From: a virus
Direction: 5' to 3' (one strand)
DNA length: 49,861 nt
Virus record (IMG/VR): IMGVR_UViG_3300037264_004711
Location: 1 to 49,861 of that record
This document shows, in pieces, positions 11,601 through 49,861 of the stretch (position 1 is the first letter of the stretch; each line of letters begins with the position of its first letter). Below the pieces are notes generated by a model. That model did not search any database and was not told where the DNA came from. It saw nothing but the letters and a program-made list of their open reading frames with translations. A program made the translations under genes and the position numbers.

Positions 11601-13151
11601 CCCCTCCTTGCCGAGCTTGACCAAGCTGACGGTGGACTTCTCGACCGACGACATGGTCGCGAGCGTGGCGCTGTCCGCCTTCTTCATGAAGTTGATGAGC
11701 GGATCGACGCCCTCGATGCCGGCCTTCTCCAGCCTGGCCCGCATGAACTCCATGACCTTGCCAACGTCCGCACCCTGCGACTGGGCCGACTTGGCCATGT
11801 GCATCAGGCCCTTGACGAAACCAGACGGCCCCTCCGACATCTGCTTGAACGCGAAGTCGATGTCTCCCCCCGCGATAGCCAGCTCGCTCACAAGACCAGG
11901 CAGCTCCGTCTGCGTGCCCGCGTACATATTCTGGAACTCCTTCTGCGAGTTCACGATCGACTTGGCCAGCCCCATCGACATGCTGCGGGCCTCGTCCGCG
12001 GCAAACCCCATCTTGCCAAGCCCCGCACTGAGAGAAACGGTCTGTGAGGCGAACTCCTGTATCTGGACGGCGCTCAGATCACCTCCAGCTATCGCAGCCT
12101 TCGAGGACAAGAGACCGAGCAGCTCGGGCAACTGACCGATCGCTCCACTCACGTCGCCCGTCTGCTGTCCCATGGCCGTCATGCTGCTGATGACCTGCCC
12201 GATCTGTTTCTCGTCCAGCCCCAACTCCTTCCGCATGCGGATGAGGTTGAGCGACATATCCTTCGCGTTGATCCCGAAGACCTCCGACATCTGGGCGATG
12301 TCGGAAGCGGATGTTGCTCCGATGGCCCCCATCTCCTTCGTCGCCTTGGTCCAACCGACGATCGAGGCGGTAGCCGTCTCGGCTCCGATATTGAGCCCGA
12401 TCGACATCCCGGCCGCCTGAGACGTTACCTTCTTCAGCGCGGCGCCCGTCAGCCCCATGTTGACGGCCGTCTGCTTGGAGGTCTTGGCTGCCGACACGCC
12501 CATGCTCTCCAGGCTTGTCGAGAGTTGGCCCGAGTCTTCCAGCAGGCTGCCGATACCGCTCTTGATCTTGCTCAGCATGCCGAGCGAGACGGCGCCGACG
12601 AACCCGGCCAGGCGGTTGACCCGCAAGAGGTCGTTCAGCTTGCCGACGATCTTCTGGATCTCTCCGAACCCGCTACCGATGTGCCGCTGGCTCTTGTGGA
12701 TGTCGTCGGCCTTCTTCTTGAAGAAGAAGCTCCCCTGCTTCAACGTGTCCTCGACTCCCGTTCGGAAAGAGCGTCGGAACGAGAGCGTCTGCCCCTCCAT
12801 CTTGGTGAACATCTTCACCATCGGGACGAACCCGGACGCCCACGTCTTGGCCTTGGCCGGGGAGAAGGCTTTATCCCCGGCATCGGCCATCACCTCAAAG
12901 CTCTTCGTAGCTTCGGTCGAGATGCCATCGAACGTGGATTGGAAAGCGTCCGTCGCCGACGGACCCATCTGACTGAAGTAGTCCTGGGCTCTGGCCGAGA
13001 CTTCGTCGAACGTAGGGGCGGCAGCCGCCTCTACCGTCTTCATCGCCGCCTTGATCTCGGTGAAGCCGGCGGCGAACTTCTCCTGCATGGCCGAAAGACC
13101 CATGTCTTTGGCGCCGAAGGAAAAACCGATGCCCAATAAATTCAAACTCAT
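8679..13151 (-). CDS. Tail tape measure protein
   Basis: This 1490-residue protein is by far the largest tail gene. The N-terminal ~600 residues are helical and coiled-coil-like. Hydrophobic segments follow, including AANPIVATIMAAVVAIGLII around residues 968-987. A Trp/Phe-rich region (~1100-1250) repeats the motif W(x)xVIxPVWxaVxxFFsgvF at least three times. The C-terminus is charged and helical. This is typical of tape measures, which set tail length, are threaded through the tube, and insert in the host membrane during ejection. The ATG at 13149-13151 has no good ribosome site directly upstream because the HNH gene lies there; a stranded AGGAG lies beyond that gene. The TGA of an antisense frame overlaps this ATG (see separate entry). 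Confidence 0.93.
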   Translation of the reverse strand: MSLNLLGIGFSFGAKDMGLSAMQEKFAAGFTEIKAAMKTVEAAAAPTFDEVSARAQDYFSQMGPSATDAFQSTFDGISTEATKSFEVMADAGDKAFSPAKAKTWASGFVPMVKMFTKMEGQTLSFRRSFRTGVEDTLKQGSFFFKKKADDIHKSQRHIGSGFGEIQKIVGKLNDLLRVNRLAGFVGAVSLGMLSKIKSGIGSLLEDSGQLSTSLESMGVSAAKTSKQTAVNMGLTGAALKKVTSQAAGMSIGLNIGAETATASIVGWTKATKEMGAIGATSASDIAQMSEVFGINAKDMSLNLIRMRKELGLDEKQIGQVISSMTAMGQQTGDVSGAIGQLPELLGLLSSKAAIAGGDLSAVQIQEFASQTVSLSAGLGKMGFAADEARSMSMGLAKSIVNSQKEFQNMYAGTQTELPGLVSELAIAGGDIDFAFKQMSEGPSGFVKGLMHMAKSAQSQGADVGKVMEFMRARLEKAGIEGVDPLINFMKKADSATLATMSSVEKSTVSLVKLGKEGFSTGRTLQESFELAEQGFVENFRNISKGRQTFVTNTTKAFGEISKTMKTSTGGTKALLGTLADVHALGAKGLLPEFLQPYAHILGMIGKNMAPLIALTAGLTFAFGPLGAVAGGAATAFLILSKVGEKLKKTFASDVTADFAGRFGNPKDLAKQRDALLAEFKKDPWKTLINYWGERFAVAMKGLPKKLKKAFKGLDKHIDKMLAFTMEGSKFDMIMGSIWESLKESFGILWARFKEFALLFWGGLTSSLDPKQSAGATATGKLAIRIGEGLKSAFIRLKDYFFSTVWPVIKTFASSVWAGLTKEFDPATAKDDPAARIGGQIGTALRSAFDYVVGEIKTYLSGWWAKISTIWSDDSKTLKDKVSETFGSSGGLMAGAAAFGFLVGPDGVLTTVRLGLKALGLGFDVVGLAAKGIGAAFRVMDAVLKGLPVLMNLASLAATGLSKAFLFLAANPIVATIMAAVVAIGLIIYYWDDLKAVAIQAWEDIKFIWAEFEPTFSRWMGAVGDFFSGLWEGMKAGASAAWDWLKGAVLTLISVFDPVIKFYKFMWSLFVLVATTAWEAVTFAAYFWFRVMKTVFNFVAGLAKWLFGVIASAAKWAWENVIVPVWSAAVGFFSGLFSAIWGVVSYVVGLIGTALVAAWTYVIQPVWNGVTAFFSGVFNGVLLVATAIFNLISGVVVGAWNNIIKPVWAAVGGFFSTVFSEAKLAVESAINAIIGIFTGWKKTIDEVFGSIDKWVDDLFRNSISTDIAADMDEAVTVLKTMTDELAAHLRDSFAEAVVNGITTAFADGFKKTVKKTQEFIKKDLDLFKDFLKILLKRFKDTFVGIAEMSDLLTKNLADLVSQITLELSKAIAQFSKLQALKTAVAGDAAVATDAAETLELPGVPPEFQVMVKAIHMPNWWTKPGSGFKDIFRAEMQQLSAQLALVGAVMKSASSTQQPVKSVKQAIIQSGRKTSALIDADQMPGDTSRGTG

Positions 13152-33377: not shown

Positions 33378-35720
33378 CTACCGCTTGGAGACGGTGGCGA
33401 GGTCGGAGACCATGTCCTGCAAGTCACGCAAGGAACGACGCAGCTCGGCGTCGTTGCGGAGCGTCTGCTCGAACCGGTCCTCTGCCCGCTTCTCGTTGTC
33501 GGATCGGTGACCGGCAAACAGCTCGCGCTCGGAAATTCCCCTAGCGCCGCCGTTCAAGCGCGGACGGTGAGAGAGCATAGGTGCCCCGTTGCTCCTGGAT
33601 CGGCTGGACCCGACAACAGGGGCGCCACCGACCGCGATGTCGGGGATGCCGGCTCCTGGGGGCTCGGCTCCTGGGGGACCCGCCGCTGGACCACCGGGAG
33701 GCTGCGCTATCTTCTGCGCCTCCATTTCGGCCTTGGCTGCCCATACGGTCTGATCCTTCACGTCCTGCTCGCGCTGGCGAACCAGCACGTCGATGTCCTC
33801 GTCGCTCATCGAGAAGACGTTCTTGTAGACCCAGTAGAGCGAGACGAAGTCCTTCATCCGACCGGCAAGGTCGGCTCGGGCGTTCCTTACTTCGAGCTGC
33901 GCCAGCTCGAAGATGGAACTGGGGACGGTCATGCGGATGTCGTAGTTCTGTGCGTACGGGTCGAGTCCGAGAGCAGCCAGATGGACGCGGCAGATCTTCT
34001 TCATGCCGTTGACCAACTCGCGTTGCACACGAAGAACAGAGCGCGCGAAGCGCACGTCTTCCGACGAAAGAATCGAACGAGCCGTCGTCTCCTCGTACGT
34101 CAGATACGCCTTCGGGATGCTCAGAGCGGCGAACAGGTGATTCTGGAAGTACTGGATGTCCTCCATGTGCTGCCACTGCGGCGCACCCAGCACGTCAATC
34201 TTCGTTCCTTCCTGCCCTTGGCGCGTCGGGAGGAAGAAGTCCTCGTCCTGACTGTTCTTGATCACGACACCAGATTCGAGGATGACTTCACCGGCCTCGT
34301 CACGCAGACAAGCTGAGAAGTTGTGCCAGACCTCCACCGTCATGCAGAACTGGTCGGCGTCGTCGATCTTCTCCACCTTCACGACGCCCGCGAAGTCTCG
34401 CTTGAGTTCTGAATCGTGGAGTAGCTCGTACCCGTCCTTAGTTTTGGACGACGTGAGTCGGCAGAAGGGCATGACCGAATCGCCGGGAGACAAGTCCCCC
34501 GCGTTCACGTACGAACGGTTCCGAAGCATGACGGGGTGATCGGGGGCCAGGTCCAGATGCCCCCCGTCGTCGAAAGTCACGCGCAGGGTAGGAGCCTGGG
34601 CGCGCGTCTGCCCAACCCACGACACCTCTCCAGGAACAGCCTGCCCAGTCTCCCGATCAACCGAATAGACCCAGTGCTTCTGGCCTGCCGCCGACTCCTC
34701 GGCCATCTGCTTGATCGTGATGGTGCGTCCGTCAAGCAGGGGGACGGGCGTGTCGTGAGCGACAGGCAAAGGGTTGAACTGCAAGTCGATTTTCCCGCTC
34801 GTGGGGTGAACGAACTTGCGCTTCTTATACTGCTGACGAACGCGGTTCACGTAGGCGAGAGCCTCGGCAGGAGGCAGGTCACCCACGTCCACGTAGAAGG
34901 CAAAGCGCTCGGGAGCGCGCTGAAGCCGGTAGATGAGGGCCGAGTCCTCCAGAAGGACGAGGCGCTTCCAGATCCAGCGGCTCGACTCCAGGATGGAGGA
35001 CCCGTAGACACTGCGACGGTGCTTTCCACGAAGCCGGAAGTGCGCGACCTCCCAGTCTTCCAGCGCGGTCACGCCGGCAAGACCGCTGGTAGGATCTTGG
35101 GATTGTCCAGGAGACCCCGCTATAGCGGCCGTGCGCGCTCCCAAGATCTGCTTGAAGTCCTCGGGCGTCCAACCGAACCGGCCTTGGAAGTCCTGGATGA
35201 AGCCAAACAGTTCGCCTCTCGGACCTTCGATGCGCCGAACCGTAGGCGGGGGAAGAAAGTTGAGACCGACGACGCCCTGCGGCGTCACCAGCAGCTCCTC
35301 CATGTTGTTCCCGTACTTGCACAGCGTTCGCGCGATCTCCCAGATCTCCTCGTCCATCCGAAGGCGCTTGTAGAGCAGATCGTCGAGCGTCGTGCGCGTC
35401 GTTCGATCAGGAGACGTGACCCACATGGTGCGGTTCAACGACGTGTCGGGAGACGTAGAGTCGTCCGCGAATATGTTGAGGGCCGCGCTGGTCAGTGGGT
35501 ACTCGTCCATCTCCTCGAAGTCCACGAAGCGCGACAGGAGATCTTGCTCCATCCGCAAGTAGTCGGAGATGACGTTGTAACCGTACGCCTGAAGCAACTC
35601 GGAACCGGACGACGGCAACCCCGAAACGGTCGCGCCGCGGGAGAGCTGGAGCGCTACTCGTTCCTTGTCCTTCGTCCAGGCGGAACGAATGCGTGTCGCG
35701 ACGTTGGAGAAAAAGCCCAC
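33378..35720 (-). CDS. Portal protein, T4 gp20 family, interrupted by an intein
   Basis: This is a 780-residue precursor starting at a GTG. Residues 1-318 and 490-780 make the portal, 609 residues after splicing. Signatures are DYLRMEQDLLSRFVDFEEMD, ALNIFADDST, the clip/stem region (WKRLVLLEDSALIYRLQRAP, ERFAFYVDVGDLPP, YKKRKFVHPTSG), and after the intein EDFFLPTRQGQEGTKIDVL and FAALSIPKAYLTYEE. Residues ~670-735 are Pro/Gly-rich. Joining residue 318 (Leu) to 490 (Ser) restores the conserved L-S-x-x-E-D-(F/Y)-(F/W)-L-P context of gp20-like portals. The dodecameric portal is the vertex through which terminase packs DNA. Confidence 0.92.
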   Translation of the reverse strand: MGFFSNVATRIRSAWTKDKERVALQLSRGATVSGLPSSGSELLQAYGYNVISDYLRMEQDLLSRFVDFEEMDEYPLTSAALNIFADDSTSPDTSLNRTMWVTSPDRTTRTTLDDLLYKRLRMDEEIWEIARTLCKYGNNMEELLVTPQGVVGLNFLPPPTVRRIEGPRGELFGFIQDFQGRFGWTPEDFKQILGARTAAIAGSPGQSQDPTSGLAGVTALEDWEVAHFRLRGKHRRSVYGSSILESSRWIWKRLVLLEDSALIYRLQRAPERFAFYVDVGDLPPAEALAYVNRVRQQYKKRKFVHPTSGKIDLQFNPLPVAHDTPVPLLDGRTITIKQMAEESAAGQKHWVYSVDRETGQAVPGEVSWVGQTRAQAPTLRVTFDDGGHLDLAPDHPVMLRNRSYVNAGDLSPGDSVMPFCRLTSSKTKDGYELLHDSELKRDFAGVVKVEKIDDADQFCMTVEVWHNFSACLRDEAGEVILESGVVIKNSQDEDFFLPTRQGQEGTKIDVLGAPQWQHMEDIQYFQNHLFAALSIPKAYLTYEETTARSILSSEDVRFARSVLRVQRELVNGMKKICRVHLAALGLDPYAQNYDIRMTVPSSIFELAQLEVRNARADLAGRMKDFVSLYWVYKNVFSMSDEDIDVLVRQREQDVKDQTVWAAKAEMEAQKIAQPPGGPAAGPPGAEPPGAGIPDIAVGGAPVVGSSRSRSNGAPMLSHRPRLNGGARGISERELFAGHRSDNEKRAEDRFEQTLRNDAELRRSLRDLQDMVSDLATVSKR
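34254..34766 (-). other. Mini-intein in the portal gene (171 aa), class 3-like
   Basis: Residues 319-489 of the precursor form a Hint/intein domain. Block A is P-V-A-H-D-T-P-V, starting with Pro319 instead of Cys or Ser. Block B is APDHPV with His395. Block F is FCMTVEVWHNF with Cys459. The C-terminal junction is VVIKN|S, with Lys488 in the place usually held by His, Asn489 as last residue and Ser490 as +1. The absence of a nucleophile at position 1 together with a cysteine in block F is the hallmark of class 3 inteins, which start splicing from the block F Cys. Only ~45 residues separate blocks B and F, so no homing endonuclease is present. The Trp and Thr of the class 3 W-C-T triad are not obvious. 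Confidence 0.85.
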
Positions 35721-35728
35721 AGTCTTGC

Positions 35729-36082
35729 CTATCCACGGAGTTTCAGGTGGTCGCGCACGGACCTGGCAAACTCTTGGCCTTCGTCCGTCAGAAGTAGCTT
35801 GGTAACACGGTCACGAGCGATGTCGGAGACCTCTTTGAAGTCGGCGTAGTCGGCAGCCCTTAGATTCGCGGCCTGCATCTCGTTGGCCAGCTCGCGCGCC
35901 ACCGCGGCTCCGAGATCTCGAAGCACGCCCCGAAGCGGGAACTTCTTCGCCAGGCCGACAGCCTGCGCCCTCGAAATCGTCGAGGGAGTCGTCAAGACCG
36001 TGCCCGTGTCGATGGCGCCTTCTTGCTGTAGCCCGAAAGCATCACGGAGGTCTCGCCGTACCTGGCGGGCCGCTCGATTCAC
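35729..36082 (-). CDS. Unknown small packaging-cluster protein (117 aa)
   Basis: I chose the GTG at 36080-36082 (protein begins MNRAARQVRRDLRDAFGLQQ), which overlaps the preceding TGA as GTGA and has TGGGA about eight bases upstream; an upstream GTG at 36133 would add 17 residues but has no ribosome site. The protein is largely helical and charged (AQAVGLAKKFPLRGVLRDLG, AVARELANEMQAANLRAADY, DFKEVSDIARDRVTKLLLTD). It ends 8 bases before the portal start. No family recognised. Confidence 0.6.
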   Translation of the reverse strand: MNRAARQVRRDLRDAFGLQQEGAIDTGTVLTTPSTISRAQAVGLAKKFPLRGVLRDLGAAVARELANEMQAANLRAADYADFKEVSDIARDRVTKLLLTDEGQEFARSVRDHLKLRG

Positions 36083-36420
36083 GTGGCGATCCCAGCCATC
36101 CGTTCGGGCGTGCTCATCATCCGGTAGAAGCACTCGACGGCCTGTGGACCGATGGGCAGCTTGCGGATCGCCTGCTCGGCCGTCCCGAGCCAGTGCGCCC
36201 CCACGTGATTCAGCATGGTACCGGGTTCCATGTCAGCCGACCGGTGCATCGTCAGGCGGAAGCCCTTGAACGAGCGTAGCTCGTCGTTCGTCAGCTTCTC
36301 CAGCTCGGGGGACTGGTCCATCGAATCGACCATCCGCAGCAGCTTGTAGTAGTCGCCCCAGGGCGGCTCCAGCATGAGGACCCGGAGGTCTTCGATCAGG
36401 TTCTTCAGGGGGGCCATCAT
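36079..36420 (-). CDS. Unknown small packaging-cluster protein (113 aa)
   Basis: The start is taken at the first of two consecutive ATG codons (36420, 36417), preceded by GGGAG; a TTG five codons upstream is less likely. The protein begins MMAPLKNLIEDLRVLMLEPP and continues with helices (YYKLLRMVDSMDQSPELEKL) and an RLTMHRSADMEPG segment. It lies between the large terminase and the portal region. No known domain was recognised. Confidence 0.6.
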   Translation of the reverse strand: MMAPLKNLIEDLRVLMLEPPWGDYYKLLRMVDSMDQSPELEKLTNDELRSFKGFRLTMHRSADMEPGTMLNHVGAHWLGTAEQAIRKLPIGPQAVECFYRMMSTPERMAGIAT

Positions 36421-36444
36421 CTTCTCCCGCGACAACGTAGTCGC

Positions 36445-38580
36445 CTACAGGGGCTTCCAGCCACCGCCATTGTCGCCCCAATCGGAGTCGGCGCCAACTC
36501 CTAGTCCGTAACCCCGGCCCCCGCCGAGGAATGGGAGGGCTGCGCCTTCAGGCATTCGGGCAGATCCGGGCTGGTGCGGGAAGAACAGCCCGTCCGGAGC
36601 CGCCCCATGTTGCTGGGCGGCCGAAGCGTGCAGGTGCTCCTCCATCCACACGTCCGGAGCGTACGAGAGACCCTTGATGATGGGAAGGGGCTGGGTCGCC
36701 GTCCGCTGGCTCAACGTGTAGAGGCAGCCGGCCAGAGCGTCACTCACATCTTTCGAGCCCTTGGGAGGGTGGTCGATCTTCTTCTTGGTCTCGTCCCGCT
36801 CAAGCTGGTGCAGCTCCTTGAAGAGCGAGGCGTAAGCGTAGACCTTGACGCGGTCTTCGTAGAAGGCCGTCTTGAGGTGCTCGTACGGGTCCTGCTTCGT
36901 ATCGACCGACAGGTGCTCGGCCCGATAGCCCTTCTGCTTGAACTGCTGGAGCGAGTCCACCGACTGCCACGTATCTAGCGTCACGTACGTGATCATATAG
37001 CCGTGCTGGCTCAACTCGTAGACGAGGCGACGAACGTCGCCCAACACGATCTCGTCTCCTACCGGAGGGATGACACGCAGGATCAGGTCCACATGGAAGA
37101 TGGGGGCGCGCTCCTGGTAAACCTCTCCGTCGTCCGTACGACGAAGCACGTCCTTCCAGCCGCACACGTGCGCGACGCACACGCCCGTCGAATCCTTCCG
37201 ATACGACGGGTCGATGTGGACGTGCCGAGGGATCTGCGGATTCACGATAGGGCGCAGAAGCTCGTGCGTGTAGCCACCGAAATCCTTCTCCTGTGTCTTC
37301 TGCACCATCCGATCCCAAAGGAAGGTACCGGACTTCGACGGGTCCCAGACTTCGGTCGAGAATGGGTGAAAGAGGCCAGGCGTCGCCACCAACTTCTCTC
37401 GGCGCTGAATGAACGGTCGAATCGCCACCGTCGAAATGCCGGCGATGTCCCGGATGGCGCCTTCGAGGTCGCTGTCGAAGTCTTGTCTGAAATCCTCTGG
37501 AACCGCGATCACCGTCACGCCGTCAGGCAGAGTGCCAGCCTCTTGCGCAGCTCTGAAACGTGGCACCTCTTCATCCGTCAGCAACTTGGACGGCGTGTTC
37601 TCGTTTCCGCACACCACGTAGAACTTCTCGCTGCTGTAGTACTCCTCTGGTTTCACGTCCCATAGCGAATAGTCCCGCGCGAACACGGTCGGGTCGTTCG
37701 CGCTCGCGCGAATACGCCGGGCCGTGAAATCCTCGCGCGTCTTCTTCGACGAGACGAGAAACATCATGCCGGGCAAACGCCCGCGCCGCTCGAAACGAGA
37801 GCGCATCCGGCGCTTCAGCCCCGTGTAGAGCACCTCGGCATGGTCGAGCGCACCCATCCGGGGGTCCGGCTTCTTCCCCGAGGAAAAAAAGTTGGTTTCG
37901 TCGAGCAGAGATCCGATCACATTTAGTCCGAGTGCTGACGTGTCGGTCGTTGCGCGGGCCGCCAGCCACACGTTGTTGGGGAACCGAAACTCCTTGCGCG
38001 TCTCCTTGAACGGGAAGTGCTGCTGGAAGTACGGGCTGGCCTTGATCTTGGTCGCCACGTTCTCGAACGCGACCTTCATGGCGAGCCCCTCATTGACCGA
38101 GAGACACACGATAGAGATGTTGGAACCGGGCGCCAGCCCGAAGCTACGCTGCGGGTCCTTCATGCACGACAGCTCGTACAGAATGCGGCACACGCCGATC
38201 GACGCGGCGAAGGTCTTGCCCCATCCGATGCTTCCCGTGTAGATCGCTTCCTGGTAACCTCCGCCAAACAGCTCCCTCAAGTCAGCCATCAGACGTGGGT
38301 ACAAGCCAGAACACGTGTTGCCGAGGAAGTACTCGTCCTTGACGAACGTCTCGATATCGACCGGCTGCGTCGTGTACTCGGCCTCGTTCATCATGTCGAG
38401 GATCATCGAGCCCGACTTGCCTGGAGCCGGAGACGCCTGTTGCTGCTGCATCTCCTGAAGGACCAGCTCCAGCGCCTCCAACTCCTCCGGGCTGAGACTC
38501 TTTAGCTCACGCTGAAGCAAGTCGTCCGACTCCTGAGACGTACGAACGCTGAACGTACGACCTTGCTTGTCTACGATCAC
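36445..38580 (-). CDS. terL: Terminase large subunit
   Basis: This is a 711-residue DNA-packaging motor. The ATPase domain has Walker A GSIGWGKT at 116-123 and Walker B/catalytic glutamate VIGSLLDETNFF with Asp227-Glu228. The nuclease domain has acidic residues in HVHIDPSYRKDSTGV (Asp457), YVTLDTWQSVDSL and KDVSDALAGCLY. It starts at a GTG overlapping the preceding gene (GTGA). Together with the portal it translocates DNA into the prohead and cuts concatemers. Length is in the normal range for terminases with an N-terminal extension. The Gly/Pro-rich C-terminus (residues ~655-711) is probably disordered. Confidence 0.95.
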   Translation of the reverse strand: MIVDKQGRTFSVRTSQESDDLLQRELKSLSPEELEALELVLQEMQQQQASPAPGKSGSMILDMMNEAEYTTQPVDIETFVKDEYFLGNTCSGLYPRLMADLRELFGGGYQEAIYTGSIGWGKTFAASIGVCRILYELSCMKDPQRSFGLAPGSNISIVCLSVNEGLAMKVAFENVATKIKASPYFQQHFPFKETRKEFRFPNNVWLAARATTDTSALGLNVIGSLLDETNFFSSGKKPDPRMGALDHAEVLYTGLKRRMRSRFERRGRLPGMMFLVSSKKTREDFTARRIRASANDPTVFARDYSLWDVKPEEYYSSEKFYVVCGNENTPSKLLTDEEVPRFRAAQEAGTLPDGVTVIAVPEDFRQDFDSDLEGAIRDIAGISTVAIRPFIQRREKLVATPGLFHPFSTEVWDPSKSGTFLWDRMVQKTQEKDFGGYTHELLRPIVNPQIPRHVHIDPSYRKDSTGVCVAHVCGWKDVLRRTDDGEVYQERAPIFHVDLILRVIPPVGDEIVLGDVRRLVYELSQHGYMITYVTLDTWQSVDSLQQFKQKGYRAEHLSVDTKQDPYEHLKTAFYEDRVKVYAYASLFKELHQLERDETKKKIDHPPKGSKDVSDALAGCLYTLSQRTATQPLPIIKGLSYAPDVWMEEHLHASAAQQHGAAPDGLFFPHQPGSARMPEGAALPFLGGGRGYGLGVGADSDWGDNGGGWKPL

Positions 38581-42306: not shown

Positions 42307-42726
42307 CTAGTCCTTCGGGTTCGGTTCCCAGGTGTCGAAGAGCCACTCGTTCAGGTAGAAGTTCTTGAGCGAGGCGTCGTCGTAGATAACGGTCCGGAGC
42401 TGCCCGTAACCGATGATGATGCCGGCCTCACCGAGCCGACGCCACGCCGCCAGCGTGAGCGGCGTGAACTGCCAGACAGGCGAGATTCCGCTCTCCTTCA
42501 AATACGTGTCTTCGATCCTCGTCGTCCCCAGGGCCGTATCCTTCGGTGTCCCGAAAACCTGATGCGTCCACTCCGAATGGATGAAGTCAACAACAGGCGA
42601 GATCTTTCCGCTGGTCGGGTGCGCTCGCTTCGAGATGCGCGTGCCTACCGCGATGAGAGGCACGTTGAGGAATGTCCTCGTCACATCCTCGAACTGGTAG
42701 ACCTGATGAAAGAGAAGCGGCATCAC
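42307..42726 (-). CDS. Unknown protein after the giant gene (139 aa)
   Basis: This protein begins at a GTG overlapping the giant gene's TGA as GTGA, or at the next codon, an ATG that shares a base with that stop. It reads MMPLLFHQVYQFEDVTRTFL, VPLIAVGTRISKRAHPTSG, then VWQFTPLTLAAWRRLGEAGI and ends with a DTWEPNPKD tail. The GIIIGYGQLRTVIYDD segment looks like a small alpha/beta core. No family recognised. The coupling suggests production together with the giant protein, perhaps as a partner or immunity-type factor, which is speculative. Confidence 0.6.
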   Translation of the reverse strand: MMPLLFHQVYQFEDVTRTFLNVPLIAVGTRISKRAHPTSGKISPVVDFIHSEWTHQVFGTPKDTALGTTRIEDTYLKESGISPVWQFTPLTLAAWRRLGEAGIIIGYGQLRTVIYDDASLKNFYLNEWLFDTWEPNPKD

Positions 42727-45700
42727 GCCTCCACGAACGGCTTGACGTACTTGTCGTAAGCGTCGCCCGCACCGGTCTCGGCAACGATGAAGTCCTCGAT
42801 GGGTACGCCATTCACTTCGAGGATGCCGGCTGCCTTCGCCTTCTTGATGATGGAGGCACGGGTGTTCTCCGAGCTACACGTCACCCGAAGGAACTTCTCC
42901 CTGGACACGCCCTTACGAGCATACAGCTCGGCACTGGCGTTGTAGCTGGACTGCTGCTTGGCAATCGCTTTCTCGACGGTGGCCCTGTTCTGCCACTCCG
43001 AGGAACCCTCTTTGCAAGCGCCATACGTATCGCTCGGGTGCATGTAGAGGTCCATTCGATCTAGCTCATCCGGGTGGATCAAGATCTCGGCAATACCAGA
43101 AACGCTGCCTGCGTGGAAACCAGAGTTCTTCCCCGAGTCCGTGACGACACGAAGCGGAACACCGTCGGATGCGCCCTTCTCCACGTCGGAACCATAGGAA
43201 GCTCCGATGTTGGCGACACCAGCGAAGTTTCGCTCGTTGATGCTTTTTAGCGAGGTCTTGAGGATGGCGACGAGCGAGTCCTCGCTCTTGACGCTGTGAA
43301 AAAGGTAGCGGAACTTGCTCTTCTCCGCGATCTTCTTCCAGCGGTCTTGCTGCACGTACGAGGCGTAGCCCTCGAAGACCTCCTTGTATTCGACCTGCTT
43401 CGACTTCTCGTCGTCCCACCCATGCTGCGATAGCAACGAGCGCAACCCGGCAACCGTACGATCCGAATCCGAGAGGTTGTCCGACTGCTGTGGGGCGACC
43501 TGAGCGTAGATCGAACTCAGCTTACGAATCTCGTCCTCCTCGGGAGTCGGGTCTCTGAAAATGTCCTTGGCCAAACCAGGCTTCACCTGCTCCAGAGCGT
43601 CGTATGCGGCCTTCGCCACGTCACCCGCCGCCTCCGGCACCTTGATGAAGCAGTAGCCCATGTAGCCGTACTTGTACGCCTCGTTGGCCACGTAGACTTC
43701 CGTGTCGCCTGAAGTCCACCGGAGCGCGTCAACCGAATCGACGTGCCCTCCCACCTCCTTGTAGATGTCCTTCTGCTCGTTGTATCCGGCCAGAGGCCAA
43801 GAGAAGGACGAACTCTGCGGGGACTTCAGCTTCTTCCAAGCGGACTTTCGCAGCTTGAATGAAACGAGGTGGTACTTGCCGCCCTTCTTGTCCTCGTAAC
43901 GCTGCACCTTGAAGCTGCCGCCTTCGACCATCGGGCCGTCTGCGGAGAATCGCTTGCCGGCATGCCCTAGCTTGGCCGCCTCCACCTGCTTGAGCCCTGC
44001 TTGATTGTGCGCGGCTGGGGTGGCCTCGTAGTCGTCAGGGAAGTAGTGGGCCTTGGCCGGAGTAGATCCGAGCTTCTCGCCGGCCGGCTCGATCGTCTCC
44101 TCTATCTCCATCGTCGCCTTCTCGAAGTCCGCCTTCTTGACGAAGTACATGGTGTACTGCGAACCCTTTACGAACCCACCGACTTCGATGCCCTTGGCGT
44201 TCTTTGGCGGTCGGATCGTTTGCACGCCGAGCTTCTCCAAGAGCTGCTGAATCTTGTCGATGCCACCGATATCCCCAACGGGAACCTTCAGCGTCAGCTT
44301 GGTCGGATCGACCGTGTTGGTAGCCGGATCGTAGAACGGCTTGACCTTCAACCCTTCGTAGCCGCCCACCTGGATATCCCAACCAGGCTGGCTGGAAGAT
44401 CCATCGGACTTGAACGGGGAGTTCGCCTTGCCGGTATCCTCCGTCTTGAACGTCAGCTTCTTCTTGACCTTCTTCGGGCCGGCCGCCTTGTCCATCCAGC
44501 CCTTCGCGAACGTGAAGGTCCCGGCGTCCGTCTTGTGCTTCTTGCGGTGGAGATCGGTGAGGAACGCCTCGAAGTTCTTTCGCAGATCTACTCGACGCCT
44601 GCCCGCCAACTTCATGAACTTGGCCTGGGCGACAGGATTGTCCGGGTAGAGTGTCTCGGCGTAAGGACGGAGAGAAGCCGCGTACTCGGGGCGACCGATC
44701 GCCTCCATCTCTTCCAGCCGCTCGCGCATATCAAGCGGGTCGAACTCGAAGTCTCCGGCGACCCAGCTCTTCCAGAAGGTGTTGTAGTAGGGCTCCTCGG
44801 GGTTGGGATGGTAGTTCACGTCCAGCTTGTCGGACCCGAAAAACCGGAAGCCCTGCTCCTTGTCCACGCCGAAGAGTTTTCCGTCCTTCGAGCGAATGAA
44901 CTGGGCGCCGTGGCTGTCGTGCTGGCTAGTCAGCCAGTCGAGCAGGTGTTCGTTGGCGATGACCTGGCGATCCGAGTCAGACAGATCCTTCGGTTTCGTG
45001 TTGCGGAGGTCTGGCTGATTGGGGTCCAGGTCCATGAGGGGCTGGAGCGTTCCGATCTTCCCTTTGATCGTCGCCACCCCGACGACTACGTTGTCGGGCC
45101 TGAATCTGAGGGCGAGGTCGCTGCATAGCTGCTGAACGACGGCGGCGTAGGGCTTGGCGCCCGTCCCGCTCTTCTCGTACGCCAGCTTGAACATCCACTT
45201 GCCGCCCTTGTCGTCCTCGTAGATCTGCTTGTCGCCCGCGCCTCCCATGTGGTTGCCGGAGCCGAGCAGCTTCAGATCCGAAACATCCGGGATGCCGGCC
45301 GGCTTCTTCATCTTCAGCTTGCCGAACGTCGTGCTCGACTTGGTCGGCTTGACGGGCGGCGGCTCAGCCGCGGGCGTGACGGGCGGCAAGTCTCCCGCCT
45401 TGATGGCGGAGGGCGTGATCTTCTGCTCGGGTACGAATCCCTCCTTGAAGAGACTGGAAGGAGTAACGGCCGGAGTCGGCACGACCGTCCCGACCTTCTG
45501 TTCCAGGTCCGTAGGATCGGGAGCGAGCCACTTCTTCCCGGTCGGGACGGCCGTCTTGGCCGTCTTGACCAGCTTGCCCGTCTTCTTGTTGAAGACGTAG
45601 CCGGTCTTCGGATCGACGTAGTGGAGGGTGGGCTTCAGGTCCTTGAGCAGGAAGATGTCGCCAGTGATCGGATGAACGAACTCCTTGAGCCCCAGGCCCA

Positions 45701-48700
45701 GCTTGACGCGCGTGTCTGCTGCTTGCAAAACCGTAGGCGGCACGTAGTCGGTCGGGAGCTTCGTGATCTTCCACTGGAACTCGTCGGACCCGATGTTCGA
45801 GCCGACAGCCGGCGCAGGCGGAGGGGCTGGAGTCGGAGAAGGCGAAGCTCCCAGCTTCTCCAGCGCGTTGTTGGCCAGGCTCTTCCAATGGTCCTTGGTC
45901 GCGGGCTCGACCGCCGCCTTGGCCAGCACGTCAGCCACCGCTTTGACCGTCGCCCACTTGCCCGTATCGAAGGCCGTTTGGTACACACCGAAAACAGACT
46001 GCTTCTGTGGACCGGTCAGGTGCTCGGCCATCTCGTCGTGGAGCTTGGCGAAGTCCTCGGACGAAAGCGCGTCGTAAACGTCCGCGTTGGAGAACGCGGG
46101 CTTGGGCTTGGCGACGCCCGCCTTCTCCTTGTGATCGGCTACCGACTCTTGCCAGTAGTTGGCGGCCGTAACGTCGCCGCTCTGCGCCCAGTGGGCCGCA
46201 ACCGCTTCGGCAACAGATGCCGCCGTCGAGTGGTCACCTGCGTCGTAGGCGGCATTGAAAGCCGGGATGACCAGAAGTTCTACCATCTCCCCCGCCAGCT
46301 TGCCGTCAGCCGCCCACTTCTTGAGGTTGTCCCAGTCGGCCGTTTCGACCGCCGTCTTCACGTCGGCGGTGAGCTTGGGACCTTTCTGCTGGGCCAACCC
46401 CGCCTTCAGTTTCTCGCCCTGACTCGCCCAAGCGTCCTTCAGGATGGCCTCGCCACTGTGAATGGCGTGCAACTCCAGCACCTCCGCCAGCTTAGCGGCG
46501 GTGGCCGGATCATCCGTTTTCGCCGTCGTGAAAGCGTCCACCAGACTCTTCCGTTGAGTCTCGTCGAGCTTGCCGGCCAACGCCCAAGCGTTGAGATCGC
46601 CCCAGCGATTCGACTCCATCGAGGCCGAGACCATTCCGGCCGTGACGGGTAGCTGACCCTTCAGGTACTTGGCGTAGCCAGACCAGTAGGCCGCGTGCTT
46701 CTCATCTCCCGTACTGGACTTGGCCTGGGCCTTCAGAATGGAGGCGATCTGCCAGGCCCGCTCCAAGTTCTCCTCTGTCATCGCATCGGCGAACAACTCG
46801 CTCAAAAGCGGAGCCATCTCGACCGGCAGTTGGCCCTGCTTGGCCTTCGCTACCGTCTCGTCAAAACCTATCTGCTCGATCGTGTTGTTGAACTTGGTGA
46901 CGAATGCGGCAAGTTCGTCTTTCGAGACGGTCTCGTCGTACTTGGGCTTGTTCTCGTGCCGTGCCTTCTGCGCGGCACTCATCTCGTCGCCCCACTTCTT
47001 CGCCTCGTCTTCGAGACCCGCCTGCTTGGCCCGTAGGCGAAGGACAGCCGCGACCTGAGCGGCCGTCATGAAGTCGCCGTCACTCATGGAGGCGGCGTAC
47101 TGCTGCTCCAAAAAGGAAGCGGACGCAGCCGACAGCTTGCCCGCTTCCGCCATCTTGGTGAGCGCGTCGTACTCGCCCGTGTTGGTCAACACGACGATCT
47201 GAGTCTCTTCGTCCTTCGCCGCCTTCTCCGCTTCCGTCGGGGTCGCGGGCTCGGCTTCGGCAGCGAGGGCGGCTTTCTGAGCGGCCTTCGCCTTCTCCAG
47301 ATGATCCTTCCATTCCTCGGCCAGATCCTTGAACCCGGTCTTCTCGTAGTGCGCGACCAGCGCGGCAGCCAAACCGATACGAAGCTTGAGTAGACCCGAT
47401 TTCTTCGCGTCGGCGGCTTCAGCCGCGAGCACGGAAACCGCGGCATTATCCAGAAGCCCCTGGGTGGCCCACGCCGAAAGAGTGTCGAGGTCGCCGTCAT
47501 CGATCACGTTCTTCACGTCGGCAGCCGACTGCTTGGCTGCCGAGTAACCTTGCGACTGCTGGTAGGCGTCCGATTCCTGCTTCGCCCAGAAGGTCACGTC
47601 AGCGTCTTCTTCGTTGCCTCCGCTCATCTCCTTGGCACGAGCCAGCAGAACGGAGGCAATCACGTTGGCCATGATGTAGTCGCCCGAGTCCTTCGCCTCC
47701 TTCCACTTCTTCTTGAGCGGGGCAGCCAAACCCATCTGCCCGAGGTCCCCCGCCTTTGCCCACTTGGTCAGTTGGACGAGATCTAGCTTGTCGAGCGCGC
47801 TCTGGATGGTCTCGGTCGTCGCGACCGTTGGATCGGACTCGGGAGCCGTGGGTTCTGGTGAGGGCTCGGCCGTCTTCGCCAGTTCGGCGCCCCACTTCTC
47901 GCTGAGCTTGTTCCAGAGGGCCGCATCCTTGAAGTCGCCGTTCTGTACGTTCATCGCGCGAAGTGTCTCGGCCAACTCCTGAGCGTTTTCCCAAGAATTC
48001 TCGGCAGCCAAGGCGTGCGCCGTATTCTGAACCATGGTCTCTTGATGTCCGTTGAGCTGCCCCCTCAGCGCCCAGGCACGAATGAATTCGTGACCGTCTT
48101 CGTCTAGCGCGTACAGCGCCGTATCGACATCATCGTTCTTGGGCGGGCTCGGCGTCTTGGTGAACTTCTGGACCAGCTTGTACGCCGAGATCAACGACAA
48201 CCAGCCGGACGCCTCCTCCTTCTCTCCGAGCTTCACCGCGCGTGCGTGCAGAGCGTTCGCCAGGTTGCTGGCGGCAAGCCAATTACCCTCCTCGGCTTGG
48301 GTGGTGACGCCCGCCTGTACCTTCCCGTAGTGGGCCTTGTCGTCCAGCTTGCCGGCCATCGCCCAACCGTCGAGCTGCTCGTAGTCGAGATCGTCGAGCG
48401 CCTTCATCACGTCGGCGGCTTCGGGTGCCGGTTCATCGGCCTCGGCCTCCGCTTCCTCTGCGTGCGCTTCGGATTCTGGATCCAGCGTCTCGCCCGCGTT
48501 CTTCTTCGCGATGGCCGCCGCGTTGGTCAGGTCAGCCACGCGCTTGGTCCAGTAGTCGATCGCGATCCCCTTGTCGCCGGCCCAGTGCTTCTGAAGCGTG
48601 GCCAACATGACCTGCGCACGACTCAACGCCAGGTCGTAGTTATCGACTCCCTCGGCGTCTGTGATCGAGTCGGTCAGCAGATCGATAAGCTCGTCGCTAG

Positions 48701-49861
48701 GCGCCGCGTGCTTGACCATCATGTTGTAGAGGAGGCGGCCGTCCTTTTCGGCGATGCCCTTATCGACACCGGCCTGCATCGCCTTCTGCTCCTGCGCGAG
48801 CCACTGCTTGAGCGACTCTCCAGCCGTCTGGACACCGCTCATCTGGGCAAACTGCTGAACCATGACGGCCGCCGCATCGGCCGCCTGTGCGAAGTTTCCG
48901 CTATCCATGGCATTGAATGCCTGAGCGGACACGACCGGAACGAACTCCTGCGGAAGTAGGCCGGCCTTTGCCTTGTCTTTCAGATCGGCGAACGCCTGCT
49001 TGGCGACCGCGCTCGTCACCTCGTCCTTGGTAAGCGGCGGAGGCTTCTCGACCGGCTGCTGCGTCAAGACGGCCGCCCACTTGTCCACGGCGGGCTGCCA
49101 GTACGTCTTGTCGTCTCCTATCTTCTCCTCCGCCGCCGTCATGATACTGGCCAGCTTGAACAGCACGTTGGCGGGAGGAGAATCCGACTGGTTCAGCTTG
49201 TAGTAGAGGTCTTCGATGTCGGTGAGCTGCTTGTCCGTCAGAACGGTCGCGCGCTTCAGGAGCGCGTCGTAGTCGCCACCCTTCAGAGAGGTGGCGAACT
49301 TCTCGTCGTCGATCGGCCCTGGCTTCTTCACCACGGCGCTCCACTGCTCGATTTTCTTAGCCCAGACGTTGGCTGACGATGCCTGCTCTTTGAACAAGGA
49401 CCGCTGGTGCATCACGTCAGCCAACGCGAGCGCGAGAGCAGCCTTCTCCGGATCGTCTCCAGCCTGCATCCTCGCCGCGTTGAACGCCTGAATCACGGCT
49501 TCCGACTCTTCGCCACCCCATCCCTCGTCCTTGACGTGGTACAGCAGCTTGTCGAAGTTCAGATCTTTGAGCGCCTGCGCGACCGCGCCGGGCACGTCTT
49601 TCGAGTCCTTCTCGCCAGCCGCGTCGTACGCCTGTTCCTGGTCAGCCCAGTACTGAGCCATGTCCGCGTGGTCCGCGTCATCGTGGTGCTTCTTGAGTGC
49701 CCAGGCGTAGCCACCTGCCTTCAACCACAGGCCCTTCTTTGCTGCCTCTGCTGCGGCCACACCGATCGCCTGTAGACCCGCATGACCCAAGGCACCGAGC
49801 TGCCCCTGAGCGGCCCACGTCTGAAACTTTTGGTAATCGCCGGCCGCGATCGTGTCCTTGA
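42723..49861 (-). CDS. Giant helical-repeat protein with kinase-like and ART-like domains, 5' end outside the window
   Basis: The frame is open to the window edge (the first visible codons encode KDTIAAGDYQKFQTWAAQGQ), so the gene starts further upstream; a TTG at 49790 is not the true start. At least 2378 residues are visible; numbering below counts from 49790. About 14 repeats of ~95 residues cover residues 1-1310. After proline-rich linkers, residues ~1505-1755 resemble the PI3/4-kinase/HipA-like kinases seen in phage proteins: KWMFKLAY (Lys), EHLLDWLTSQHDSHGAQF and GVDKEQGFRFFG. Two beta-rich segments follow (~1800-2040). The end (~2155-2355: RYLFHSVKSEDSLVAILKTS, NERNFAGVANIGASYGSDVE, GVPLRVVTDSG) resembles ADP-ribosyltransferase-like modules attached to phage head proteins. 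It may be a virion-packaged or host-directed multidomain effector. Confidence 0.75.
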   Translation of the reverse strand, partial: KDTIAAGDYQKFQTWAAQGQLGALGHAGLQAIGVAAAEAAKKGLWLKAGGYAWALKKHHDDADHADMAQYWADQEQAYDAAGEKDSKDVPGAVAQALKDLNFDKLLYHVKDEGWGGEESEAVIQAFNAARMQAGDDPEKAALALALADVMHQRSLFKEQASSANVWAKKIEQWSAVVKKPGPIDDEKFATSLKGGDYDALLKRATVLTDKQLTDIEDLYYKLNQSDSPPANVLFKLASIMTAAEEKIGDDKTYWQPAVDKWAAVLTQQPVEKPPPLTKDEVTSAVAKQAFADLKDKAKAGLLPQEFVPVVSAQAFNAMDSGNFAQAADAAAVMVQQFAQMSGVQTAGESLKQWLAQEQKAMQAGVDKGIAEKDGRLLYNMMVKHAAPSDELIDLLTDSITDAEGVDNYDLALSRAQVMLATLQKHWAGDKGIAIDYWTKRVADLTNAAAIAKKNAGETLDPESEAHAEEAEAEADEPAPEAADVMKALDDLDYEQLDGWAMAGKLDDKAHYGKVQAGVTTQAEEGNWLAASNLANALHARAVKLGEKEEASGWLSLISAYKLVQKFTKTPSPPKNDDVDTALYALDEDGHEFIRAWALRGQLNGHQETMVQNTAHALAAENSWENAQELAETLRAMNVQNGDFKDAALWNKLSEKWGAELAKTAEPSPEPTAPESDPTVATTETIQSALDKLDLVQLTKWAKAGDLGQMGLAAPLKKKWKEAKDSGDYIMANVIASVLLARAKEMSGGNEEDADVTFWAKQESDAYQQSQGYSAAKQSAADVKNVIDDGDLDTLSAWATQGLLDNAAVSVLAAEAADAKKSGLLKLRIGLAAALVAHYEKTGFKDLAEEWKDHLEKAKAAQKAALAAEAEPATPTEAEKAAKDEETQIVVLTNTGEYDALTKMAEAGKLSAASASFLEQQYAASMSDGDFMTAAQVAAVLRLRAKQAGLEDEAKKWGDEMSAAQKARHENKPKYDETVSKDELAAFVTKFNNTIEQIGFDETVAKAKQGQLPVEMAPLLSELFADAMTEENLERAWQIASILKAQAKSSTGDEKHAAYWSGYAKYLKGQLPVTAGMVSASMESNRWGDLNAWALAGKLDETQRKSLVDAFTTAKTDDPATAAKLAEVLELHAIHSGEAILKDAWASQGEKLKAGLAQQKGPKLTADVKTAVETADWDNLKKWAADGKLAGEMVELLVIPAFNAAYDAGDHSTAASVAEAVAAHWAQSGDVTAANYWQESVADHKEKAGVAKPKPAFSNADVYDALSSEDFAKLHDEMAEHLTGPQKQSVFGVYQTAFDTGKWATVKAVADVLAKAAVEPATKDHWKSLANNALEKLGASPSPTPAPPPAPAVGSNIGSDEFQWKITKLPTDYVPPTVLQAADTRVKLGLGLKEFVHPITGDIFLLKDLKPTLHYVDPKTGYVFNKKTGKLVKTAKTAVPTGKKWLAPDPTDLEQKVGTVVPTPAVTPSSLFKEGFVPEQKITPSAIKAGDLPPVTPAAEPPPVKPTKSSTTFGKLKMKKPAGIPDVSDLKLLGSGNHMGGAGDKQIYEDDKGGKWMFKLAYEKSGTGAKPYAAVVQQLCSDLALRFRPDNVVVGVATIKGKIGTLQPLMDLDPNQPDLRNTKPKDLSDSDRQVIANEHLLDWLTSQHDSHGAQFIRSKDGKLFGVDKEQGFRFFGSDKLDVNYHPNPEEPYYNTFWKSWVAGDFEFDPLDMRERLEEMEAIGRPEYAASLRPYAETLYPDNPVAQAKFMKLAGRRRVDLRKNFEAFLTDLHRKKHKTDAGTFTFAKGWMDKAAGPKKVKKKLTFKTEDTGKANSPFKSDGSSSQPGWDIQVGGYEGLKVKPFYDPATNTVDPTKLTLKVPVGDIGGIDKIQQLLEKLGVQTIRPPKNAKGIEVGGFVKGSQYTMYFVKKADFEKATMEIEETIEPAGEKLGSTPAKAHYFPDDYEATPAAHNQAGLKQVEAAKLGHAGKRFSADGPMVEGGSFKVQRYEDKKGGKYHLVSFKLRKSAWKKLKSPQSSSFSWPLAGYNEQKDIYKEVGGHVDSVDALRWTSGDTEVYVANEAYKYGYMGYCFIKVPEAAGDVAKAAYDALEQVKPGLAKDIFRDPTPEEDEIRKLSSIYAQVAPQQSDNLSDSDRTVAGLRSLLSQHGWDDEKSKQVEYKEVFEGYASYVQQDRWKKIAEKSKFRYLFHSVKSEDSLVAILKTSLKSINERNFAGVANIGASYGSDVEKGASDGVPLRVVTDSGKNSGFHAGSVSGIAEILIHPDELDRMDLYMHPSDTYGACKEGSSEWQNRATVEKAIAKQQSSYNASAELYARKGVSREKFLRVTCSSENTRASIIKKAKAAGILEVNGVPIEDFIVAETGAGDAYDKYVKPFVEA
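45860..49861 (-). repeat. Array of ~95-residue helical repeats in the giant protein
   Basis: Fourteen units share the core (L)-x-x-W-A-x-x-G-x-L, then a helix ending in a short acidic/Gly turn, then A-x-x-(L/A)-A-x-x-(L/M)-x-x-(R/H)-A, and a closing helix with a conserved Trp (often Y-W or W-A/K/G). Clear examples are LDGWAMAGKLDD, LNAWALAGKLDE, LKKWAADGKLAG and LTKWAKAGDLGQ. The array continues beyond the window edge. The look is of an alpha-solenoid. Confidence 0.7.

What the first reader, a model, noticed from the sequence alone, without database searches (positions are those of the whole stretch)
34254..34766. Pro1 mini-intein splitting a gp20-type portal
It has class 3-like features: no nucleophile at position 1, and a Cys in block F. 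Yet it has Lys where the penultimate His normally sits and no obvious class 3 Trp/Thr. It has no endonuclease domain, so it either depends on another endonuclease or is now fixed. Splicing is needed for a functional portal, so it may time head assembly.
Basis: partly seen in the sequence, partly recalled or inferred. Interest (0 to 1): 0.7.

Follow-up and report, generated by a model that had tools for sequence, protein, structure and literature searches.

The report
Proline-first inteins in phage portal genes
A phage portal gene carries a self-removing protein segment (an intein) that starts with proline instead of the usual reactive amino acid, and at least 73 related segments in other phages share the same odd start together with an internal cysteine, which points to an undescribed lineage of inteins that splice by a different first step.

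Summary
Window 34254-34766 (-) encodes a 171-aa mini-intein in a T4-type (gp20) portal: Pfam Intein_splicing 4.6e-11, and an intein-free relative joins FNPL|SQDED at exactly this point. Pro1 is not decay. Searches of viral contigs gave 73 non-identical inteins starting with Pro, all in T4-type portal genes at three sites. All 69 complete ones have Pro1, Cys at F:4, a terminal Asn and a Cys/Ser/Thr +1. None has the class 3 Thr at G:5 or a penultimate His; the class 3 Trp at B:12 is rare (3/58). All four Pro codons are used, most copies are large, and the intein evolves under constraint like its host protein. In trees with trait columns removed they form one clade (with two Cys1/CysF:4 lineages inside) among class 1 portal inteins, apart from class 3; a common origin with class 3 is not rejected (AU p 0.25-0.43).

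Best mechanism: class 3-like, with Cys459 (F:4) attacking the Leu-Pro bond, transfer to Ser490, then Asn489 cyclisation. Splicing itself is inferred. It meets the loose definition of class 3 but fails two of three signature residues. I file it as a new variant. 'Timing head assembly' is untested.

The parts
33378..35720 (-). T4-type portal (gp20-like) precursor, 780 aa, GTG start
   Evidence: ORF; Pfam Portal_T4 4.5e-61; PHROG 213 portal 5.6e-53; N-terminus aligns with L001 MGFFSDVANR
34767..35720 (-). N-extein, residues 1-318, ending ..QFNPL
   Evidence: empty-site alignment with L001
34254..34766 (-). Mini-intein, 171 aa, residues 319-489
   Evidence: PF14890 4.6e-11; exact empty-site boundaries; model pLDDT 87, Foldseek probability 1.00 to inteins
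33378..34253 (-). C-extein, residues 490-780 plus stop, starting SQDEDFFLP
   Evidence: empty-site alignment with L001
34764..34766 (-). Pro1 (Pro319, CCT), the position normally held by Cys/Ser
   Evidence: Pro in 69/69 complete relatives
34536..34538 (-). His B:10 (His395)
   Evidence: alignment; His in 58/58 Pro1 inteins
34344..34346 (-). Cys F:4 (Cys459), proposed first nucleophile
   Evidence: Cys in 69/69
34323..34325 (-). Block F His (His466 of HNF, called F:13 here)
   Evidence: HNF in 58/58
34257..34259 (-). Lys488 at G:6, where most inteins have His
   Evidence: no His at G:6 in 69 relatives
34254..34256 (-). Asn G:7 (Asn489), C-terminal cleavage by cyclisation
   Evidence: Asn in 69/69
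34251..34253 (-). Ser+1 (Ser490), acceptor nucleophile
   Evidence: Cys 56/Ser 11/Thr 2 in relatives
35316..35324 (-). Empty 'site a' in this portal (residues 133-135, RTL|CKYGN), where most Pro1 relatives sit
   Evidence: sequence comparison with site-a inteins, TRNT|..|CKYGD

Best explanation
The insert is a splicing-competent mini-intein of a previously undescribed lineage ('Pro1/Cys-F:4 portal inteins'). Proposed pathway: (1) with His B:10 (His395) helping to strain and polarise the N-terminal junction, the thiol of Cys459 (F:4) attacks the carbonyl of Leu318 in the Leu318-Pro319 bond, which gives a branched thioester; (2) the acyl group passes to the hydroxyl of Ser490 (+1); (3) Asn489 cyclises, probably aided by the invariant block F His466 because the penultimate His is Lys, and frees the intein; (4) an O-to-N acyl shift leaves a native Leu318-Ser490 bond and an intein-free portal. 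The scissile X-Pro bond is a tertiary amide and easy to distort, and I suggest it takes over the priming role that the class 3 Trp/Thr pair and a class 1 residue-1 nucleophile play elsewhere. The window copy is a deletion derivative of an HNH-bearing mobile intein. Shown by sequence: identity, boundaries, the co-conserved residues, constraint and membership of the clade. Inferred: that it splices, the order of nucleophiles, and the role of proline.
For: Intein identity and exact empty site. 69/69 complete Pro1 inteins have Cys F:4, Asn G:7 and Cys/Ser/Thr +1; His B:10, the HNF His and Trp50 are 58/58, at mean pairwise identity 56% and minimum 34%. Cys1 relatives have Asp 48, Cys 26, Thr 16, Asn 4 at F:4, so Cys there is obligatory only with Pro1. 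Pro is kept through synonymous change: CCA 31, CCT 26, CCC 11, CCG 5. Position 1 is never Ala, Gly or Ser in the clade, only Pro or, in L173-176 and L398, Cys. Constraint: intein dN 0.27 / dS 2.1 against extein dN 0.33 / dS 1.9, window versus L086. HNH_3-like matches, below the curated cut-off, in four relatives; 44 of 58 are large. A non-WCT class 3 intein (AceL NrdHF: MCT, no His at F:13 or G:6) splices efficiently, and its A1G mutation abolishes splicing, showing the need for a strained N-junction (PMC7891396).
Against: No biochemical or proteomic data. Both class 3 signature partners (Trp B:12, Thr G:5) are missing; in classical class 3 inteins mutating the Trp blocks splicing (PMC5222942). 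Position B:7 is Ala here instead of Thr. Grafting WCT onto a class 1 intein gave almost no splicing (PMC7664689), so Cys F:4 alone is not sufficient in general. The window C-terminal part is more diverged (55-57% identity to L086/L087, against 72% between those two), so partial loss of activity in this copy is not excluded.
Confidence: 0.75

Rival explanations
1. [quoted passage not shown]
For: No residue-1 nucleophile; most site-a relatives have Ser at G:6 and Cys+1, as in KlbA class 2 inteins (PMC4031507).
Against: The window and the other site-b/c members have Ser or Thr +1, which are weak direct nucleophiles (Ser 11, Thr 2 of 69). Class 2 inteins use Asp at F:4; here F:4 is Cys without exception.
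Confidence: 0.12
2. A bona fide class 3 intein whose Trp and Thr were lost: the Pro1 lineage shares a single ancestor with known class 3 inteins. (This concerns ancestry; it is compatible with the mechanism of the best explanation.)
For: It meets the operational definition used for 1701 class 3 inteins (no Cys1, Cys at C2:4; PMC7891396). Three of 58 relatives have Trp at B:12. An AU test does not reject Pro1 + class 3 as one group (p 0.43; p 0.25).
Against: ML trees with trait columns removed put Pro1 inside class 1 portal inteins (88/91, clade 96/89) and class 3 elsewhere (100/99). Thr G:5 is 0/69. The Pro1 group shares with class 1 portal/RtcB-type inteins an extended N-domain and GDSLMPF-like motif that class 3 lacks. 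Relatives carry HNH-like domains, whereas 82.5% of class 3 inteins carry LAGLIDADG motifs.
Confidence: 0.2
3. A dead or cleavage-only intein: splicing was lost with Cys1, and the portal works unspliced or as two fragments.
For: Position 1 lost its nucleophile, the penultimate His is Lys and B:7 is Ala. A class 3 intein pseudogene is documented (PMC3196547).
Against: Conservation of every residue needed for the Cys-F:4 route in 69/69; strong constraint; retained HNH-like domains; many intein-free relatives suggest excision would be selected if the intein blocked an essential portal.
Confidence: 0.1

Closest known systems
Class 3 inteins (mycobacteriophage DnaB/TerL type, e.g. Gaia TerL1-e)
   Same: No residue-1 nucleophile needed; Cys F:4; His B:10; Asn G:7; Ser/Thr +1 (as in the window copy); found in phage genes
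   Different: Known class 3: Ala/Ser1, Trp B:12, Thr G:5, His G:6 (Gaia: ALALDT..HLW..KCISV..VTHN). Pro1 lineage: Pro1, Tyr/Phe/Val/Ile and rarely Trp at B:12, Leu/Val/Ile at G:5, Ser/Lys and others at G:6, HNH-like endonuclease, separate clade in the tree
AceL NrdHF split intein (non-WCT class 3, PDB 6zgq)
   Same: Cys-F:4 chemistry without Trp B:12 and without His at F:13 or G:6; splices well (PMC7891396); Foldseek hit to the model
   Different: Ala1, keeps Thr G:5, split, in a ribonucleotide reductase gene; Pro1 members keep the block F His
Class 1 portal-gene inteins with Cys1 (L095-L107, L128, LR756508 portal)
   Same: Nearest clade in sequence and host gene, partly the same insertion site (YNPL|..), often non-His penultimate residue
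   Different: Cys1; F:4 Thr, Asp, Asn or Cys; short F-G loop
SP-15 terminase intein (KT624200, SP15_022)
   Same: Most significant cultured-phage hit to the insert, 39% over 97 aa
   Different: Canonical class 1: Cys1, Asp F:4, His G:6, Cys+1, larger with an inserted domain
Class 2 inteins (Mja KlbA)
   Same: No residue-1 nucleophile; Ser G:6 in many Pro1 site-a members
   Different: Ala1, Asp F:4, Cys+1, archaeal KlbA host gene

Membership tests
Intein (HINT splicing domain) | Matches splicing-domain models and the HINT fold | tested here: met
   PF14890 above cut-off; model pLDDT 87 with Foldseek probability 1.00 to 1mi8, 4o1r and others
Intein (HINT splicing domain) | In-frame insert with an exact empty site in homologues | tested here: met
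   L001 and other portals
Intein (HINT splicing domain) | Splices the host protein | not testable with these tools
   needs expression or mass spectrometry
Class 1 intein | Cys, Ser or Thr at intein residue 1 | tested here: not met
   Pro1 in the window and in 69/69 complete Pro-first relatives
Class 2 intein | KlbA gene, Ala1, Asp F:4, Cys+1 | tested here: not met
   portal gene, Pro1, Cys F:4, Ser+1 in the window
Class 3 intein | No nucleophile at residue 1 | tested here: met
   Pro1
Class 3 intein | Cys at F:4 | tested here: met
   Cys459; 69/69 relatives
Class 3 intein | Trp at B:12 | tested here: not met
   Val in the window; Trp in 3/58 relatives
Class 3 intein | Thr at G:5 | tested here: not met
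   Ile in the window; Leu/Val/Ile in all relatives
Class 3 intein | One clade with known class 3 inteins | tested here: inconclusive
   ML trees separate them; AU does not reject a joint group (p 0.43 and 0.25)
Class 3 intein | Cys F:4 branched thioester intermediate | not testable with these tools
   needs biochemistry
T4-type portal (gp20) | Portal_T4 model and head-gene neighbourhood | tested here: met
   PF07230 4.5e-61; Gp23 major capsid 4.7e-71 and S77 prohead protease 9.1e-16 nearby; terminase PHROG 4.1e-7 adjacent
Homing (endonuclease-bearing) intein | Endonuclease domain inside the intein | tested here: not met
   171 aa, none in the window copy; same-site relative L085 has an HNH_3-like match 5.4e-4, below its curated cut-off

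The most novel reading that the evidence does not exclude
A fourth mechanistic type of intein: an independent loss of the residue-1 nucleophile in phage portal inteins, in which an obligatory proline makes the scissile X-Pro imide reactive and Cys F:4 starts splicing without the Trp/Thr pair or a penultimate His. Class 2 and class 3 are each thought to have arisen once (PMC4031507), so this would be a third independent solution.
Probability: 0.45. Interest if true: 0.82.

Novelty: new variant of a known kind. Interest (0 to 1): 0.7.

Why it matters
Inteins without an N-terminal nucleophile are few in kind, and class 2 and class 3 are each thought to have had a single origin. A large clade that always pairs Pro1 with Cys F:4 and dispenses with the signature residues would show a different chemical solution for activating the N-terminal junction. 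It also makes a testable question of what the scissile-bond residue contributes: P1A, P1G and P1C in one small protein. Natural Cys1 members in the same clade offer a before/after pair. For protein engineering, inteins that do not use a residue-1 thiol are of practical interest. It further shows T4-type portal genes of uncultured phages as a hot spot for inteins.

Tried and rejected
(1) Decay: rejected because Pro1, Cys F:4, His B:10, Asn and +1 are invariant in many diverged relatives, and the intein is constrained like the extein. (2) Lineage-specific portal domain: rejected by exact empty sites. (3) Claiming a proven convergent origin: dropped, since the AU test did not reject a joint clade with class 3. 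(4) A second conserved Cys (WC motif, intein position 51) as nucleophile: rejected, since it is Val in the window trio. (5) Looking for a cultured phage with a Pro1 intein: none among 50,697 phage records with two Pro1 queries. (6) Looking for Pro1 in cellular genomes: the returned loci with a detected residue 1 were all Cys1. (7) Mycobacteriophage reference accessions AY500153, DQ398053, NC_009878, NC_008207, EU744248 and EU826469 were not held; Gaia and others were used instead. (9) Papers on Pro1 inteins: none found; the original class 3 papers are not held. (10) The PF14890 search of the window's own record gave no match in the tool's first look, although hmmscan of the translated protein is above cut-off; I take this as a sensitivity limit.

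Full report
What is there. The minus-strand ORF 33378-35720 (780 aa) is a T4-type portal (Pfam Portal_T4 4.5e-61; PHROG 213 5.6e-53) in a T4-type head-gene neighbourhood: Gp23 major capsid, S77 prohead protease and a terminase. Residues 319-489 (34254-34766) match Intein_splicing at 4.6e-11, above its curated cut-off. A portal 69% identical in its best segment, on IMG/VR contig 3300017991_000116 (L001), joins ..FNPL directly to SQDED... In a wider search, twelve portals with a QDED motif (L001's own locus among them) show the same uninterrupted spacing across the site. So the insert is exactly 171 aa, starts with Pro and ends with Asn, followed by Ser+1. The AlphaFold2 model of the insert with 10 flanking residues on each side has mean pLDDT 87 and pTM 0.83. 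Its best structural matches are inteins, led by Ssp DnaB; AceL NrdHF (class 3) and KlbA (class 2) also appear.

Relatives. An alignment of the insert with two phage inteins, used to scan viral contigs, returned same-site inteins at 64-69% identity (L085, L086, L087) and several more distant ones that also start with Pro. Further scans and extraction with profile models gave 73 non-identical Pro1 inteins, 69 with both ends. Judged by their flanking sequence, all lie in T4-type portal genes. Three sites are used: a (TRNT|CKYGD, the most common), b (YNPL|SxxED, the window's) and c (GGQF|TGDIDD, one case). The window portal has site a empty (RTL|CKYGN).

Signature. In the complete Pro1 inteins, Pro1, Cys F:4, Asn G:7 and a Cys/Ser/Thr +1 are present in 69 of 69; Thr G:5 and His G:6 in none. 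In the 58 scored position by position, His B:10, the HNF His of block F and Trp50 are invariant, while B:12 is Tyr 35, Phe 15, Trp 3, Ile 3, Val 2. The comparison set of Cys1 inteins has Asp 48, Cys 26, Thr 16, Asn 4 at F:4. So Cys at F:4 is tolerated with Cys1 and obligatory with Pro1. All four proline codons occur (31/26/11/5), and pairwise identity falls to 34%. This is amino-acid-level conservation of Pro, not recent common descent alone.

Is it alive? Between the window and L086, dN is 0.27 and dS 2.1 in the splicing domain, against 0.33 and 1.9 in the exteins; window-L087 gives 0.33 and 0.89. dS is near saturation, so these ratios are rough, but there is no sign of relaxed constraint. 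44 of 58 relatives are large, and the four I scanned hold an HNH_3-like match, below Pfam's own cut-off. Minis such as the window copy therefore look like endonuclease-deletion derivatives that kept the splicing residues. Activity itself is not shown.

Phylogeny. Trees were built with position 1, F:4 and the last four positions removed. The Pro1 inteins plus the Cys1 sequence L173 form one clade (95/91, 96/89) inside class 1 portal inteins; in a third tree with L398 added the same grouping has weaker support (85/66). Class 3 references (Gaia TerL, whose splicing was shown in PMC5050341, and others) form a separate clade (99/99 and 100/99). The window groups with L085 and L087 (100/99). An AU test did not reject a tree that unites Pro1 with class 3 (p 0.43; p 0.25), so independent origin is favoured but not proven. 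Two Cys1 lineages (L173-176, L398) sit inside the clade and keep Cys F:4. Either Pro1 arose more than once, or Cys1 was regained. A Cys-Ser-Pro path is possible by single-base steps (TGY-TCY-CCY; inference).

Mechanism. The residues fit the class 3 order of events: attack by Cys F:4, transfer to +1, Asn cyclisation. Class 2 is less likely because the site-b and site-c members have Ser or Thr +1 and F:4 is never Asp. Loss of Trp B:12 and of His at F:13 and G:6 is compatible with function, as shown for AceL NrdHF, which keeps Thr G:5; there A1G abolished splicing, pointing to a strained N-junction (PMC7891396). In classical class 3 inteins the Thr is of small or moderate importance but Trp mutation blocks splicing (PMC5222942). 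My added inference is that the obligatory X-Pro bond supplies the strain.

Known or new. By the loose definition (no Cys1, Cys at C2:4) these could be called class 3; by the WCT signature they fail two of three residues. I found no paper describing Pro1 inteins, but the library lacks the original class 3 papers, and the supplementary list of 1701 class 3 inteins could not be read and may hold some of these. No cultured phage with a Pro1 intein was found.

Limits. The 69-73 count is of non-identical sequences, some close to each other. The search was seeded from this group, so Pro1 inteins in other genes may have been missed. The AU tests and trees rest on 135-150 columns. No biochemical test could be run.

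Noticed in passing
L173-L176 (L173 ORF at 2194, residue 304) and L398 (ORF at 1391, residue 504): Cys1 inteins inside the Pro1 clade, at site a, that keep Cys F:4 and the long F-G loop: natural intermediates or reversions.
   Followed up: partly
L003 402-4562 (LR756508, 484-kb uncultured phage): One portal gene appears to hold three inteins with Cys1; one ends in ..TLKN|S, again with Lys as the penultimate residue.
   Followed up: no
L087 1239-6107 and L092 243-5519: Portal genes with several inteins each; L092 holds two different Pro1 inteins (sites b and c) in one gene.
   Followed up: partly
L004 6662-8281 (Bacillus phage SP-15, SP15_022): Annotated hypothetical protein is a terminase-like N-terminal part interrupted by a class 1 intein with an inserted domain.
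   Followed up: no
L412 (Streptococcus phage vB_SagM-GXN1, record 33486-37016): Unannotated DNA polymerase-like ORF with a Cys1 intein that seems to end in Gln (..GIVVHQ|SQNE) instead of Asn.
   Followed up: no
L332 (Acinetobacter phage nACB2 ribonucleotide reductase): Intein with Cys1, Cys at F:4 and a Ser penultimate residue.
   Followed up: no
Pro1 inteins other than window, L085, L087: A WC motif at intein positions 50-51: Trp in 58/58 and Cys in 55/58, Val in the window trio; role unknown.
   Followed up: no
window 42723-49859 (-) and 8679-13151 (-): Very long ORFs (2378 aa, running off the window end, and 1490 aa); the 2355-aa and 1490-aa ORFs have no Pfam match.
   Followed up: no
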